Shown: positions 31,508 through 37,982 of the stretch, piece after piece | Layout: every line of letters begins with the position of its first letter | How positions within the stretch are numbered: the first letter of the stretch is position 1 | Source of the DNA: Candidatus Marinimicrobia bacterium CG08_land_8_20_14_0_20_45_22 | GTDB taxonomy: Bacteria > Fidelibacterota > UBA2242 | Length of the DNA stretch: 49,006 nucleotides | Direction of reading: 5' to 3' | Assembly: GCA_002774355.1 (NCBI GenBank) | Contig: PEYN01000213.1 | Span: 1-49,006, forward strand | The notes under the pieces: generated by a model | The model's input: the letters and a program-made list of their open reading frames with translations, nothing else | The model's database searches: none | Told to the model about the DNA's origin: nothing | Position numbers and translations under genes: made by a program

Positions 31508-33949
31508 TTGTCGAATAAGTTTACTTTTTCTTATGCTTTTGTACTTTGGGTCTCAACCATCGTTCTAAGTCATATCGGTCTTTCTCAGGAAATTCCCTCT
31601 TCTGATAGCCGAATATACTATGTCGGGGGCGATCACAAATTTCCGCCATACGAATATTTAAACGAAAAAAACGAACCGGAAGGTTACGTCGTTGATGTTA
31701 TGCGAGCAGTCGCCAAAGCCGCCCACATCCGAATCGACATTCAATTGCAATCATGGAGCAATGCACGTTTTGCACTGGAAAATCGCAAAATTGACATCCT
31801 CGAAGGAATGTTCTATTCAAGAGAACGCGATAAAGTGTTCGATTATTCCGATCCGCATACAACTGTATCTCATACAATATTTGTGCGAACGGACAATACG
31901 GCGATTCAATCTCCAAAAGACTTAGTCGGAAAATCGGTCATCGTCCAAAAAGACGACATCATGCACGATTATCTACTGAATCGGAAATTTGACTGTAAAA
32001 TTGTCACCGTTGAAAATCCGGAGCAGGCGCTGGATTTGCTCGCTTCTGGAAAACACGACTGCGCACTGATTGCCGAAATGCAGGGGTTATATTATCTTAA
32101 TTTAAAAAAGATAACGAATCTCACCGTTGCTGGCGCTTCATTTTATAATGTCAGATATTGTTTTGCCGTCGCTGAAGGCGACTCTATTCTTCTTAAACGT
32201 TTGGACGGAGGGCTGAAAATTATCAAATCGACCGGCGAATATTACATGATATACGACCACTGGTTCGGCAAAGCGGATATTAGCAAACTGAAAATGACCT
32301 TATTTTATATCTTAATTGCCGCTTTTGTTTTGATGAGCGCAACTCTGTTCGGAACTCATGTATGGACATCGACTTTAAGAACAAAAGTCAAAAAAGCCAC
32401 CGAAGATTTAACTAAAGAGATTGTAGAGCGAAAGAAGATCGAAGGTAAACTCGCCGAAGAAAAAATTCTTCTTCGGCTGGTTATCGATAACATCCCGGAT
32501 GAAATATTCGTCAAAGATATTCATTCTCGATTCATCCTTGTTAACCAAGCCGTTTTAAAAGGGCACGGATTTTCAACAAGCGAGGAAATTGTCGGGAAAA
32601 CCGATTTCGATCTCTTCCCCCCAGAACGAGCAAAGATATTCTGGGATGAAGAACAAACCATTTTCAGAACCCAAAAACCAATGCTCAATGTCGAAAGTTC
32701 GTATATCGGAAAAGACAACAAATTAGGATGGACCGCGACATCCAAAATACTCATGAAAAATATTCATGGCGCAGTTATCGGACTCGTCGGCGTCAAACGA
32801 TTCATCACCGATCAAAAACTTGCTGAAGAAGAAGCATTGAGAGCGAGAAAAATCGAATCGCTTGGTATTCTTGCCGGCGGCATTGCGCACGATTTCAATA
32901 ACATCCTGACGATTATTCTGGGAAATATTTCACTTTCCAAGTCTCTAATCAATCCCGATAGTAAAATCGTTAAATATCTGACAAATTCCGAAATTGCGTC
33001 TTTACGCGCCAGAGATCTCATTCAAAAGTTACTAACATTTTCAAAGGGCGGTCAGCCGATTCGCAAACCGATCGCTATCGGAAATCTTTTGCAGGAAACA
33101 GTTACACTCTCGCTCAGCGGTTCAAAAGCGCGATCTGTTTTTTCCATTCCACACGATCTTTGGACGGTCGAAGTGGATGAATCTCAGATGAATCAGGTAA
33201 TTTCCAATCTCGTGATCAATGCCGATCAGGCTATGCCTACAGGTGGAATTATTGAGATTTTTGCAGAAAATACGATCCTCGAAGAAACCAAGTACGCATT
33301 GCCTGCAGGTAAATATATCCGCATAATCTTTAAAGACTCCGGAATAGGGATTCAAAGGGAATATCTACAAAAAATATTCGATCCTTACTTTACGACCAAA
33401 TCGAAAGGTAGCGGTTTAGGTCTTGCAACGACTTATTCGATCATTAAGAATCACAACGGAGCGATAACAGTCGATTCTGAAATTGGTAAAGGAGCCGTTT
33501 TCACAATTCTTCTCCCCGCTTCCGAAAAAGAGGCAACTACAAAAGAAACATCATCCGCGACTGATTTTAGAGGAACCGGCAATATACTCGTGATGGATGA
33601 TGAAGATTACGTTCGGGATTTGCTCGGTTCGATTTTGTCCGGTCTTGGATTTCACGTGGATTTCGCAGAAAACGGCGATCAGGCAATTCAAAAATATCAA
33701 GACGCAATGCATTCCGGTCAGCCTTTTCATGCGGTAATTTTGGATTTGACAATTCCGGGCGGAATGGGCGGAAAGGAAACCATCGGTCATCTTTTGAAGA
33801 TCGATCCGAATATTAAAGCGATAGTGTCCAGTGGATATTCGAATGACCCGTTAATGGCGCATTACAAAGATTATGGATTCTGCGGCGTCGTTGCCAAACC
33901 GTATGACATCAATCAATTGATCAATGTGATGAAAAGCATCGAAGGTTAA
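31508..33949 (+). CDS. Hybrid histidine kinase with periplasmic solute-binding (SBP_bac_3) sensor
   Basis: The 813 residues read in order: signal sequence; family-3 solute-binding domain (about 33-255, YYVGGDHKFPPYEYLNEKNE, DILEGMFYSRERD); one membrane segment (about 262-285); coiled linker; PAS (about 315-440, DIHSRFILVNQAV); HisKA with phospho-His in GGIAHDFNN; HATPase (NQVISNLVINADQAM, DSGIGIQ, GSGLGLATTYSI); and a C-terminal receiver (ILVMDDEDYVRDL, LDLTIPGGMGG, AKPYD). The TTG start follows AAAGGAGA. It probably senses a small solute, perhaps the one carried by the adjacent TRAP system, and passes phosphate to an unlinked partner. That link is inference from the 18-bp spacing to dctM. 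Confidence 0.92.
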   Translation: MSNKFTFSYAFVLWVSTIVLSHIGLSQEIPSSDSRIYYVGGDHKFPPYEYLNEKNEPEGYVVDVMRAVAKAAHIRIDIQLQSWSNARFALENRKIDILEGMFYSRERDKVFDYSDPHTTVSHTIFVRTDNTAIQSPKDLVGKSVIVQKDDIMHDYLLNRKFDCKIVTVENPEQALDLLASGKHDCALIAEMQGLYYLNLKKITNLTVAGASFYNVRYCFAVAEGDSILLKRLDGGLKIIKSTGEYYMIYDHWFGKADISKLKMTLFYILIAAFVLMSATLFGTHVWTSTLRTKVKKATEDLTKEIVERKKIEGKLAEEKILLRLVIDNIPDEIFVKDIHSRFILVNQAVLKGHGFSTSEEIVGKTDFDLFPPERAKIFWDEEQTIFRTQKPMLNVESSYIGKDNKLGWTATSKILMKNIHGAVIGLVGVKRFITDQKLAEEEALRARKIESLGILAGGIAHDFNNILTIILGNISLSKSLINPDSKIVKYLTNSEIASLRARDLIQKLLTFSKGGQPIRKPIAIGNLLQETVTLSLSGSKARSVFSIPHDLWTVEVDESQMNQVISNLVINADQAMPTGGIIEIFAENTILEETKYALPAGKYIRIIFKDSGIGIQREYLQKIFDPYFTTKSKGSGLGLATTYSIIKNHNGAITVDSEIGKGAVFTILLPASEKEATTKETSSATDFRGTGNILVMDDEDYVRDLLGSILSGLGFHVDFAENGDQAIQKYQDAMHSGQPFHAVILDLTIPGGMGGKETIGHLLKIDPNIKAIVSSGYSNDPLMAHYKDYGFCGVVAKPYDINQLINVMKSIEG

Positions 33950-33982
33950 TTCGGGCAGAAAAAAAAGACTCACTCCTCTCCT

Positions 33983-34195
33983 TTCATTCTGAGCCACAGA
34001 GAAAATCGCATAAAGAAACACTAACTCAAACAAGAATTGACACTAAAGATTAGTGTAAAAGAAAAATCGTGGCGAAGTTGGAACGAAGTGGAAATCCCGC
34101 TTGCGGGGAATCTTTATTGTTTATATTGAACACTCCCAAGTGAGATTGCTCGTTACTTGTCCACGATTCTTCGTCGCTACGCGTTTTATCTACAG
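33983..34195 (+). repeat. Dispersed intergenic repeat, copy 2
   Basis: This stretch repeats 130-330 in the opposite orientation, the best block being 34,068-34,113. It fills the gap between two convergent genes (33,950-34,236) and carries the CATTCTGAGCCA and TTCTTCGTCG boxes. A TTCGCGTT tandem (34,201-34,218) follows. No gene or T-run terminator was seen. Confidence 0.65.
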
Positions 34196-35232: not shown

Positions 35233-35425
35233 TTGATAACCTAACTTTTATATATCAGATCAACCATTCAGTTCAAATTCAATTACCTTAATTCATTCAA
35301 CCAACCCAAAAACGTGTCCATTGTAACCAAGAAATAGTTAAAAGTCAATCAAATATTATATTTCCAAAGATCATTATGACGAGCAAATTCATTTATTCCA
35401 ACTGGATTTTTATTGTTTAAAAAAT
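35233..35425. other. Intergenic, no feature seen
   Basis: A/T-rich spacer upstream of the HAD gene, presumably containing its promoter. I saw no open frame, hairpin or repeat in it before the palindromic array begins at 35,426. Confidence 0.4.
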
Positions 35426-35703
35426 GTCCCGGAGGGACGATTGAATGGGTCAATTGATGTCTCGATTCATCCGTCCTTACGGGACGTGTATTAACATTTG
35501 TAATTCCATGTTCCCACGATTAAAATCGCGGGCTATTTTCATTTATCCCTACAGGATTATGATCAGTGAAAACGCGTTTTTATTTTCATTTGTCCCGAAG
35601 GGACATATGACAATAACCCGGCAATTCATTGCCGGGAAACGATAACATATGTAACAATCCGTCCCGTAGGGACGATTGAATGGATCGATCGATGTCTCGA
35701 TTT
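35426..35703 (+). repeat. Multi-palindrome repeat array, left part
   Basis: One complete unit of about 235 bp (35,426-35,660) and the start of a second (35,661-35,703). Each unit chains several different short palindromes: GTCCCGGAGGGAC, GTCCTTACGGGAC, CCCACGATTAAAATCGCGGG, ATCCCTACAGGAT, GTCCCGAAGGGAC and CCCGGCAATTCATTGCCGGG. They are separated by A/T-rich stretches. The second unit breaks off after GATGTCTCGA where the HepT/MntA pair begins, and the same unit resumes on the other side at about 36,396. Confidence 0.8.
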
Positions 35704-35715
35704 GTTAATCAATTA

Positions 35716-36045
35716 TTAAAGATTCTTCAATTCAATCAAAAATGGAGGCAGATGATTTTGGATAATATCCCAGACCTCTTCAGCATCGATCCCAAAATAA
35801 TCATGAGCGACGATATTTCGGAATCCTCTGATTTTGCTCCAGTTTATCTGTCGTTGATCTTCGAGGAATTCCTCCGAAAGACGATTGACCATTTCACCAA
35901 TGATAATGAAATTCATCAAAACGGCATCGAAATCACGCGAGTTCTGATAAAATTGATCGGCATCTTCATACCCTTTTGTGTACTCAAATATCTTTTCGAT
36001 CGACTCTATTATCGATATAATATTTAAACGATCTTTAAACGGCAT
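35716..36045 (-). CDS. hepT: HepT-like toxin (DUF86 family)
   Basis: The 109 residues are all-helical and carry the HepT motif RX4HXY as RNIVAHDY (in IRGFRNIVAHDYFG), the proposed RNase active site. Further hallmarks are LMNFIIIGEMVNRLS and a start of the DRLNIISIIESIEKI type. In studied pairs HepT is a toxic RNase that its nucleotidyltransferase partner silences by AMPylating the Tyr of this motif. The start overlaps the end of the mntA-like gene by 11 bp, as usual for the pair. The whole module lies within a palindromic repeat array. Confidence 0.9.
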   Translation of the reverse strand: MPFKDRLNIISIIESIEKIFEYTKGYEDADQFYQNSRDFDAVLMNFIIIGEMVNRLSEEFLEDQRQINWSKIRGFRNIVAHDYFGIDAEEVWDIIQNHLPPFLIELKNL

Positions 36046-36337
36046 AAATCGCTTCCCTTAGAACGATTTCCCTGGCATAGGGTTTAAGATATTTGATTCT
36101 GCAGAGATCAACTTCGCATCCAAATTGCTCTGATAAATATTTCCGTAGTTTTGATTTCACTTCAAATATATTCTCTATGGAAAAATCAAATTCAACCAAA
36201 ATATCAACATCGCTACCGGATCTCTGTTCATTTCGGGCGCAGGAGCCAAACAAACCGATTTTCTGAACATGATAATCACGTCTCAGAATTTCTGAATTGT
36301 TTTTTAAAATCGATAATATATCATCTTTATTGAACAT
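36035..36337 (-). CDS. mntA: MntA-like nucleotidyltransferase antitoxin
   Basis: About 100 residues of a minimal nucleotidyltransferase: GLFGSCARNEQRSGSDVDILVEF contains the GSxAR and DxD metal-binding signature, followed by KSKLRKYLSEQFGCEVDLC. It probably AMPylates and neutralises HepT. I start at the ATG at 36,337 (FNKDDILSIL) because homologues begin here; an in-frame start at 36,400 would add 21 unrelated residues drawn from the flanking repeat spacer. Confidence 0.88.
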   Translation of the reverse strand: MFNKDDILSILKNNSEILRRDYHVQKIGLFGSCARNEQRSGSDVDILVEFDFSIENIFEVKSKLRKYLSEQFGCEVDLCRIKYLKPYAREIVLREAIYAV

Positions 36338-36395
36338 GGTATAAAATAAACAGATAGGCCCGTTATCACAAGGTTTTTTAAATGTCAAACGTTTC

Positions 36396-36690
36396 CTCAC
36401 AATTGAGATCGTGGGCTATTTTCACACAATCCCTACGGGATTATAATCAATAAAAATACGTTTTTTTTATTTGTCCCGAAGGGACATCCGATAATAACGC
36501 GGCAATTCATTGCCGGGAAACGATAACATATGTAACAATCCGTCCCGTAGGGACGATTGAATGGATCGATTGATGTCTCGATTCATCCGTCCTTACGGGA
36601 CGTAGATTAACATTTGTAATTCTATGTTCCCACGATTGAAATCGTGGGCTATTTTCATGTTACTTTACGGGATTTATTTTATTGAATAAG
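36396..36690 (+). repeat. Multi-palindrome repeat array, right part
   Basis: The unit described at 35,426 resumes here (GAGATCGTGGGCTATTTTCA) and runs to 36,541. It is followed by most of another unit from GTCCCGTAGGGAC at 36,542. The stretch 36,421-36,600 closely repeats 35,541-35,700. Together with the left part the array spans about 1.26 kb with the toxin-antitoxin pair inside. Confidence 0.8.
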
Positions 36691-36809
36691 TTATACCTGA
36701 CACGCAACCTTTGCGTCAATCTCATCGGGCGCTCAATCTCTTTATGTAACTGAATGGCATGAGGTTATCCGTCTTTTCCGGATTCTGCCAAACGGCACGG
36801 ATAATCATT

Positions 36810-36893
36810 CAAGTCATTTTGATAAATGTTCAGATCATTTTATAAAGTATCTAAATCATTTGAACATTTGTCCAGGTCGTTTGAACACTTGCT
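36810..36893. repeat. Four imperfect 21-bp tandem repeats
   Basis: Units start at 36,810, 36,831, 36,852 and 36,873, each with the core (A/G)TC(A/G)TTT followed by an AT-rich tail. On the minus strand the period of 7 codons would give xxxxNDL heptads but with a stop codon, so it is at most a relic of coding sequence. An inverted repeat TTATCCGT (36,765-36,772) and ACGGATAA (36,797-36,804) lies just before it. Confidence 0.6.
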
Positions 36894-36901
36894 CAACTGA
36901 G

Positions 36902-37982
36902 ACTGTAAGATAAAGTGTGTAAACCTTCGAAATAGGGATTAAGTTAATGCAAGAAAATTGGAGGAATTACACATGGAAATTGACAAGAAGGCACTTCAGC
37001 AGATGATAATGGCCAATGACATCAAGACGACGGAGGATTTGCAGGCTTTACTGCGAGATCTGACGAAGGAGATGATAGATACGATATACGAAGGGGGGTT
37101 GACGGCCCACCTGGGGTATGAACGTCATGCTCAAGGAGGGGAAAAGGGTGGCAATTACCGGAACGGTCATGGGAAGAAGACGGTTAAGAGCCACCTGGGT
37201 GAGATTGAGTTATCTCCGCCTCGGGATCGGCTGGGGGCATTTGATCCGGAGATCGTACGGAAGCGCCAGACGGATATATCGGGGTTAGAGATGAAAGTCA
37301 TCAGTCCGGCAACTGCCGGATAAAGGGATGAGCACCCGCGACATTCGGGTTGACGGTGATGAACGAATTAAAGAACCGCGGAGTTGAGGACATCCTGATC
37401 TTTGCGGTAGATAATCTGACGGGCATATCGGACGCTATCGCGACGGCTTTCCCAAAAGCCGAAATCCAGAAATGTATCGTTCACCAGATCCGCAATTCGC
37501 TTAAGTTTGTACCCTGTTCCATGGGAACTCCTTCGGAGGAAAGAACGCAAAGCAGTGGCTGCTGATTTGAAGAAAATCTATAGTGCAGTGACCCCTGAAC
37601 AGGCCGAATCGGAGTTGTCTGCATTCGAGGAGAAATGGGACTCGAAATATCCCCATATTGCCAAATCCTGGCGGAAGAATTGGGCGGAATTATCGACCTT
37701 TTACAAATTTCCGCCAGCCATCCGGAAACTGATCTATACGACCAATCCCATGTAGAGTTTTAACCGGGGCATACGTAAAGTGACCAAAACACGCTCAGTC
37801 TTTCCAACAGAAGATGCGCTGCTCAAATTGGTTTTTCTGGCGGTGCGGGATATTGAAAAAAAGTGGACGATGGCTTACCCGGATTGGGGAATTATTAATT
37901 TGCAACTTTCAATTTATTTTGAAGATATTTTGAAAAATTATGTCTAAATTCAAATGCAGTTTATACACTTTGTCTTACACTA
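36902..37982 (+). mobile_element. Decayed IS256-family insertion sequence
   Basis: Terminal inverted repeats are visible: ACTGTAAGATAAAGTGTGTAAAC at the left end (36,902-36,924) pairs with the reverse complement of 37,959-37,981, with about two mismatches in the core TGTAAGAyAAAGTGTrTAAAC. Inside is a broken IS256-type transposase gene. The bases outside the two ends do not match as an 8-bp target duplication, which suggests later rearrangement or deletion. The right end abuts the open reading frame of a sensor kinase. Confidence 0.85.
36973..37947 (+). pseudogene. IS256-family transposase, inactivated
   Basis: Recognisable pieces of a transposase of about 400 residues. The N-terminal part (DLTKEMIDTIYEGGLTAHLGYE, GGNYRNGHGKKTVKSHLGEI) ends in a stop at 37,323 near the usual TRDI motif. 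A large piece with the first catalytic Asp is missing. VMNELKNRGVEDILIFAVDNLTG resumes in another frame at 37,350. An insertion of about 20 bp near 37,510-37,530 shifts the frame again before RRKERKAVAADL. A G-to-T change turns the Glu codon of TTNPMESFNRG into TAG at 37,753. The C-terminal SFNRGIRKVTKTRSVFPTED and the final stop follow. It cannot make an active enzyme. Confidence 0.9.

What the first reader, a model, noticed from the sequence alone, without database searches (positions are those of the whole stretch)
35426..36690. Toxin-antitoxin pair inside an array of 235-bp multi-palindrome units
Each unit strings together about six different palindromes, and the array is interrupted exactly by hepT/mntA. 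The unit breaks after GATGTCTCGA and resumes near ATCGTGGGCTATT with only about 75 bp missing. It looks like insertion of the module into a pre-existing repeat, or repeat-mediated capture. The multi-palindrome unit may itself be a mobile or RNA-encoding element.
Basis: seen in the sequence. Interest (0 to 1): 0.6.

Follow-up and report, generated by a model that had tools for sequence, protein, structure and literature searches.

The report
Toxin-antitoxin pair inside a hairpin-repeat array
An ordinary toxin-antitoxin gene pair sits inside a short array of DNA hairpins, and those hairpins, which databases list as a mystery RNA called Acido-Lenti-1, turn out to be repeats that flank a poorly understood group of bacterial transposases.

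Summary
Three diverged tandem copies of a ~235-bp unit (six compact hairpins each) lie at 35426-36674, and the middle copy is split by an intact hepT/mntA pair. The gap in that copy is 45 bp (unit-1 positions 35468-35512), not about 75. The full unit occurs nowhere else in this draft genome.

The unit is a mosaic of inverted hairpin pairs. Two of them match Rfam RF01687 ('Acido-Lenti-1 RNA') above its cut-off, on opposite strands. In other genomes RF01687 elements cluster beside IS200/IS605-type Y1 transposases: 28 of 154 hits lie within 1 kb, where 0.34 are expected. They mostly flank the genes in inverted orientation. The transposases carry the Y---Q--HH signature of TnpA_Y1 subclass 1.2, which the literature describes as generally lacking terminal hairpins. 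Non-Watson-Crick stem pairs favour A.C over G.U on Rfam's strand, so the structure is probably kept as ssDNA or on the other strand. Best reading: a REP/BIME-like array of this transposase group.

HepT relatives are not linked to the element (0 of 80 loci), so this insertion is a one-off. It occupies the slot where the transposase sits elsewhere. Cargo transport by the transposase is not shown.

The parts
35388..35422 (+). degenerate remnant of a further half unit at the left edge of the array
   Evidence: 74% identical to 35538-35572 (family D5)
35426..35660 (+). unit 1, the only complete 235-bp unit: six hairpins arranged as two inverted half units
35513..35558 (+). RF01687 (Acido-Lenti-1) element: hairpin CCCACGATTAAAATCGCGGG, CTAT tail, second hairpin ATCCCTACAGGAT
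   Evidence: 39.4 bits, over the gathering score of 37
35591..35636 (-). second RF01687 element, inverted: hairpin CCCGGCAATGAATTGCCGGG, TTAT tail, hairpin GTCCCTTCGGGAC
   Evidence: 38.9 bits, over the gathering score
35661..35702 (+). left piece of unit 2, ending at GATGTCTCGATT, at the centre of the unit's inverted repeat
   Evidence: 90% identical to unit 1 and 98% to unit 3
35716..36045 (-). hepT, HEPN ribonuclease toxin, 109 aa, RX4HXY motif intact (RNIVAHDY)
   Evidence: PF01934 E 5e-29; NF047751 50.8 bits, below its cut-off of 60
36035..36337 (-). mntA, adenylyltransferase antitoxin, 100 aa from ATG at 36337, GSX10DXD motif intact (GSCARNEQRSGSDVD)
   Evidence: PF01909 E 3e-15; NF047752 45 bits, below its cut-off of 60
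36396..36541 (+). right piece of unit 2; 45 bp (equivalent to 35468-35512, with hairpin GTCCTTACGGGAC) are missing between the two pieces
   Evidence: alignment; holds an R1 match at 36396-36442 (+, 30.4 bits) and one at 36472-36517 (-, 54.8 bits)
36542..36674 (+). unit 3, partial, with an R1 match at 36629-36661 (+)
   Evidence: 89% identical to unit 1

Best explanation
The array is a cluster of REP/BIME-like DNA hairpins. Its building block is a pair of hairpins (stem CCC..GGG, tail CTAT or TTAT, linker, stem GTCCC..GGGAC) that Rfam lists as Acido-Lenti-1 RNA. Shown here: this element belongs with IS200/IS605-type Y1 transposases of TnpA_Y1 subclass 1.2, whose genes it mostly flanks in inverted orientation. 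Inferred: the transposase recognises the hairpin as single-stranded DNA, with the NTAG/NTAA tetranucleotide 5' of the hairpin on the complementary strand as guide, and cutting, copying and recombination between copies build arrays. The present array is an orphan without its own transposase gene. A horizontally acquired, structurally intact hepT/mntA pair (HepT an RNase, MntA blocking it by adenylylation, after the characterised Shewanella pair) replaced 45 bp at the centre of the middle unit's inverted repeat, probably by illegitimate recombination at a cruciform-prone site. The pair and the array are otherwise functionally independent, except that the hairpins beyond the hepT stop codon may serve as its transcript end.
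For: RF01687 hits on both strands of the unit over the gathering score. The only other clear RF01687-like places in this genome (C91, C136) are the two best Y1 transposase loci of the genome, with palindromes around the genes. Within 1 kb of a PF01797 gene lie 7 of 63 RF01687 hits in the phylum (0.15 expected) and 21 of 91 in 15 other genomes (0.18 expected), at 15 distinct transposase genes. Element found at 15 of 28 transposase-centred loci not used to build the model, against 0 of 80 hepT-centred loci with six times more DNA. Nearest element upstream is '-' in 16 of 20 and downstream '+' in 17 of 22. Transposase motif Y---Q--HH: element within 600 bp in 21 of 35 with it and 0 of 7 without. 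Product is IS200-type by NCBIfam (73.9 bits, cut-off 55) and by solved structures (ISHp608). A.C 39 against G.U 10 in stems of 131 distinct elements; 15 genomes lean to A.C and 2 to G.U. Tail CTAN in 66 and TTAN in 28 of 131. HepT relatives at 59-69% lie in distant lineages while family members are at 45% or less, which fits horizontal gain.
Against: No transposase flanked by this exact unit was found in the draft genome (213 contigs). Most RF01687 hits (126 of 154) are not near a transposase, and one genome with 20 hits (G270) has none detected. The tail is not the canonical GTAG/GTGG of REPs. No second copy of the full unit exists, so amplification of this unit cannot be followed. The order 'array first, pair second' rests only on the in-register split of the middle unit. 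The association is by position; no biochemistry.
Confidence: 0.8

Rival explanations
1. The unit is a structured non-coding RNA, as the Rfam label Acido-Lenti-1 sRNA says, and the array makes a structured transcript, perhaps a regulator of the toxin-antitoxin pair.
For: Rfam match over the gathering score; strong predicted fold; a 2010 comparative study listed it as a likely RNA (PMC2864571).
Against: Elements come as inverted pairs, so either strand matches. On Rfam's strand A.C mismatches outnumber G.U 39 to 10 although an RNA model should favour G.U. They gather at transposase genes. 0 of 80 hepT loci have them.
Confidence: 0.08
2. The pair is cargo: the hairpin elements flanking hepT/mntA act as ends, and a transposase elsewhere in the cell moves the segment, as a transposase-less (passenger) element.
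For: The pair lies between a '-' element on its left (35591-35636) and a '+' element on its right (36396-36442), the same arrangement as most transposase genes (10 of 18 with both flanks scored); three Y1 transposase genes exist in the genome.
Against: Elements alternate in the array, so that slot has about a one in two chance anyway. No second copy of pair plus elements, in the genome or at 80 + 29 hepT loci. The pair splits a unit rather than being bordered by whole elements.
Confidence: 0.1
3. The gene pair was there first and the array grew around it, or two different arrays came to flank it; no insertion into an array took place.
For: No empty site could be shown; the pieces of unit 2 were never seen joined in any genome.
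Against: The two pieces are complementary parts of one unit in the right register and order, with only 45 bp lacking. Two independent arrays would have to end and start at matching points.
Confidence: 0.14
4. The palindromes are attC-like sites of a gene-cassette array, with hepT/mntA as cassette.
For: Toxin-antitoxin cassettes and palindromic sites are usual in chromosomal integrons (own knowledge).
Against: Units follow each other without genes between them, each holds six short near-perfect hairpins rather than one long imperfect one, and no other RNA/DNA family was matched. No dedicated attC model or integrase search was run.
Confidence: 0.02

Closest known systems
Acido-Lenti-1 RNA motif (Rfam RF01687; Weinberg et al. 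2010, PMC2864571)
   Same: Two elements per unit match the family over its gathering score, same two-hairpin layout.
   Different: Here the element lies on both strands in inverted pairs inside a larger array, and across genomes it is tied to Y1 transposase genes; the mismatches do not fit an RNA on the modelled strand.
REP sequences and BIMEs with their RAYT transposases (PMC2817692, PMC3733652)
   Same: Palindromes in alternating orientation and regular spacing, in clusters; transposase gene flanked by inverted copies; unpaired tag next to the hairpin.
   Different: The transposases here fall below the RAYT cut-off (30 of 80 bits) and above the IS200 cut-off; tag NTAG/NTAA rather than GTAG/GTGG; a fixed second hairpin; few copies per genome.
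TnpA_Y1 subclass 1.2 (Quentin et al. 2018, PMC6006769)
   Same: Signature Y---Q--HH, about 148 aa, low copy number.
   Different: The paper describes it as generally without typical terminal secondary structures; here 21 of 35 such genes have an RF01687-like element within 600 bp.
HepT/MntA toxin-antitoxin system (PMC7641770)
   Same: HEPN and MNT genes side by side, RX4HXY in HepT and GSX10DXD in MntA intact.
   Different: Nothing, apart from its place inside a hairpin array; NCBIfam equivalog cut-offs are narrowly missed.

Membership tests
Rfam RF01687 (Acido-Lenti-1) | score at or above the gathering score of 37 bits | tested here: met
   39.4 and 38.9 bits for the two elements of unit 1; the copies in units 2 and 3 score 25.8-28.2, below it
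Rfam RF01687 (Acido-Lenti-1) | acts as an RNA on the modelled strand | tested here: inconclusive
   A.C exceeds G.U 39 to 10 in stems, against expectation for an RNA on that strand; no expression data
REP/BIME | short palindromes in alternating orientation, regularly spaced | tested here: met
REP/BIME | high copy number dispersed in the genome | tested here: not met
   full unit at one place only; RF01687-like elements at three clear places in the genome; other genomes reach about 20 hits
REP/BIME | GTAG or GTGG tetranucleotide 5' of the hairpin | tested here: not met
   complement of CTAN or TTAN, mostly ATAG, TTAG, ATAA; related to but not the canonical tag
RAYT (REP-associated tyrosine transposase), for the associated genes | NF047646 cut-off of 80 bits | tested here: not met
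   30.1 and 29.2 bits
TnpA_Y1 subclass 1.2, for the associated genes | HuH motif plus Y---Q--HH signature | tested here: met
   21 of 23 element-flanked reading frames, the other two truncated or fragments
TnpA_Y1 subclass 1.2, for the associated genes | place in the published tree, subclass-specific C-terminal domain | not tested
   reference sequences of the paper not at hand
HepT/MntA toxin-antitoxin | adjacent PF01934 and PF01909 genes with RX4HXY and GSX10DXD | tested here: met
   motifs read in the translations, definition from PMC7641770
HepT/MntA toxin-antitoxin | toxicity, and neutralisation by adenylylation | not testable with these tools
   needs expression in a laboratory strain

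The most novel reading that the evidence does not exclude
The RF01687 hairpin pair is the substrate of TnpA_Y1 subclass 1.2, and such elements can carry passenger genes: hepT/mntA here took the place of the transposase gene between two inverted elements and can be moved in trans, a hairpin-bounded toxin-antitoxin cassette of a new kind.
Probability: 0.08. Interest if true: 0.75.

Novelty: new variant of a known kind. Interest (0 to 1): 0.5.

Why it matters
Two orphans seem to explain each other. RF01687 has been carried as an sRNA of unknown function since 2010 and is still being read as a possible regulator (a 2026 paper suggests this for protease genes of Tannerella, PMC13298647, while finding no mobile elements there). 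TnpA_Y1 subclass 1.2 has been described as generally lacking terminal hairpins (PMC6006769). If the hairpin pair is the DNA substrate of this transposase group, RF01687 annotations should be read as traces of a mobile-element system, and the transposase gets a defined substrate to test in vitro. The toxin-antitoxin insertion that started this is of lesser importance. No published link between the two was found, but only open-access text could be searched.

Tried and rejected
Dispersed MITE: rejected, the full unit has one location. Phage or plasmid origin of the unit: no match. hepT/mntA generally riding with the element: 0 of 80 and 0 of 29 loci; hairpin-rich flanks of any kind are also unusual around hepT elsewhere (1 of 71 loci has two or more hairpins on both sides). 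Empty site in relatives: the same-genus genome is collinear to window position 31750, where its contig ends; the left flanking gene's homologues in other genomes lie in other contexts. Y1 transposase near hepT in other genomes: none in 80 loci. MIR families in the Rfam list are chance matches far under their cut-offs. A first alignment of RF01687 hits was wrong because strands were mixed and was replaced. I first called the associated genes RAYTs; NCBIfam does not support that name, so I use TnpA_Y1 subclass 1.2.

Full report
What is there. The array at 35426-36674 holds three diverged copies of a ~235-bp unit in one direction; the middle copy is split. Unit 1 is 35426-35660. Unit 2 runs 35661-35702, stops after GATGTCTCGATT, and resumes at 36396 in register with unit-1 position 35513; unit 3 is 36542-36674. 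The lacking part corresponds to 35468-35512, 45 bp, and holds one hairpin (GTCCTTACGGGAC). The break is at the centre of a large inverted repeat seen intact in unit 3 (arms 36523-36565 and 36578-36620). Between the pieces lie hepT (35716-36045, minus) and mntA (to ATG at 36337, minus); they overlap slightly and mntA comes first. Both signature motifs of the characterised system are intact (RNIVAHDY for RX4HXY; GSCARNEQRSGSDVD for GSX10DXD; definitions from PMC7641770). G+C of the pair is 35%, of the array 42%, of the window 43%.

Beyond chance. Both sides of the array fold about six standard deviations better than shuffles. Hairpin density next to the pair (three per 400 bp on each side) is reached by 2 of 122 tiles of the window.

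What the unit is. Rfam scanning identifies two elements in unit 1 as RF01687, Acido-Lenti-1, over the gathering score and on opposite strands; weaker matches fall in the other copies. The unit is thus a mosaic in which the two-hairpin element alternates in orientation. The full unit is unique in this genome. RF01687-like elements elsewhere in the genome: two matches on contig C91 and one on C136, plus a marginal one. Reading those places showed a Y1 transposase gene at both, with palindromes around it. A search for PF01797 gave three genes in the genome, and the two best are exactly these.

Is that general? RF01687 was sought in 245 genomes of the phylum (25 positive) and in 44 genomes reached through hepT relatives, mostly Bacteroidota (15 positive); PF01797 was sought in the positive genomes. 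Within 1 kb of a transposase gene lay 7 of 63 hits in the phylum (0.15 expected for random placement) and 21 of 91 in the second set (0.18 expected), at 5 and 10 distinct transposase genes. Random placement is a crude null, since both features are intergenic or in variable regions, and hits in one array are not independent; counted by transposase gene it is still 15 against 0.34. In the reverse direction, a covariance model built from 16 elements finds the element at 15 of 28 transposase-centred 3-kb loci that gave nothing to the model, and at none of 80 hepT-centred loci with six times more DNA. The 80 hepT loci hold no such transposase either.

Geometry and subclass. Read along the gene, the nearest element upstream is on the minus strand in 16 of 20 cases and downstream on the plus strand in 17 of 22; both together in 10 of 18. 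That is the inverted REP-transposase-REP layout described for RAYTs (PMC2817692). The proteins, however, pass the IS200/IS605 model and fail the RAYT model, resemble ISHp608 TnpA and carry Y---Q--HH, the signature of TnpA_Y1 subclass 1.2 (PMC6006769). Of reading frames with that signature 21 of 35 have an element within 600 bp; of complete ones without it, 0 of 7 (Fisher p 0.004). The cited paper describes this subclass as generally without typical terminal secondary structure features.

DNA or RNA. In 131 distinct elements, stems are nearly always Watson-Crick; of the exceptions 39 are A.C and 10 are G.U on Rfam's strand. Counted once per genome and position it is 30 to 10, and 15 genomes lean to A.C against 2 to G.U (p 0.002). 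A.C on one strand is G.T on the other, so the structured strand is more likely the complement, where the unpaired tail reads NTAG or NTAA directly 5' of the hairpin. That recalls the tetranucleotide guide of REPs and IS200-type ends. A transcript of the complementary strand is not excluded.

The gene pair. HepT's closest relatives (59-69%) lie in Calditrichota, KSB1 and Desulfamplus records, while relatives in its own family are 45% or less: a horizontally moving pair. None of those loci carries the element. The pair lies between a minus element on its left and a plus element on its right, the slot in which transposases sit elsewhere; since elements alternate this has about even odds by chance. 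I therefore take the insertion as a single event, replacing 45 bp at a palindrome centre, and not as proof of capture or transport. Order of events cannot be proven: the same-genus genome is collinear up to 31750 and ends there.

Shown: array, split unit, RF01687 identity, transposase association, inverted geometry, mismatch bias, lack of a general hepT link. Inferred: recognition as ssDNA by the transposase, how arrays grow, insertion after array formation, activity of the toxin-antitoxin pair, hairpins as transcript end.

Noticed in passing
36958-37755: Broken Mutator-family (IS256-type) transposase: N-terminal (36958-37323) and C-terminal (37507-37755) parts match PF00872 in different frames, next to the array.
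   Followed up: partly
36808-36900: Degenerate 21-bp tandem repeat just right of the array. A different 21-bp tandem array (eight copies, L016 2868-3098) lies just right of the transposase palindromes on contig C91; whether the two are related is unknown.
   Followed up: no
33979-34168: About 190 bp between two genes that recur at 83% at an unrelated place in the same-genus genome (G001:C37:1701-1890): a dispersed repeat.
   Followed up: no
L017 3470-3830 (G000:C136): Tandem array of other palindromes (GGACTAAAGTCC, CCACG..CGTGG in inverted pairs) downstream of the second Y1 transposase gene, with a hairpin CCCAGCAATGAATTGCTGGG much like one in the window's unit.
   Followed up: partly
L021 (G000:C150:1301-1516): Third, divergent Y1 transposase gene, flanked by palindromes of yet another sequence (TCAGGTCCTCAGACCTGA).
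   Followed up: no
G270 (genome of L112, Saprospiraceae): 20 RF01687 hits but no PF01797 gene detected: orphan elements or a transposase missing from the draft.
   Followed up: no
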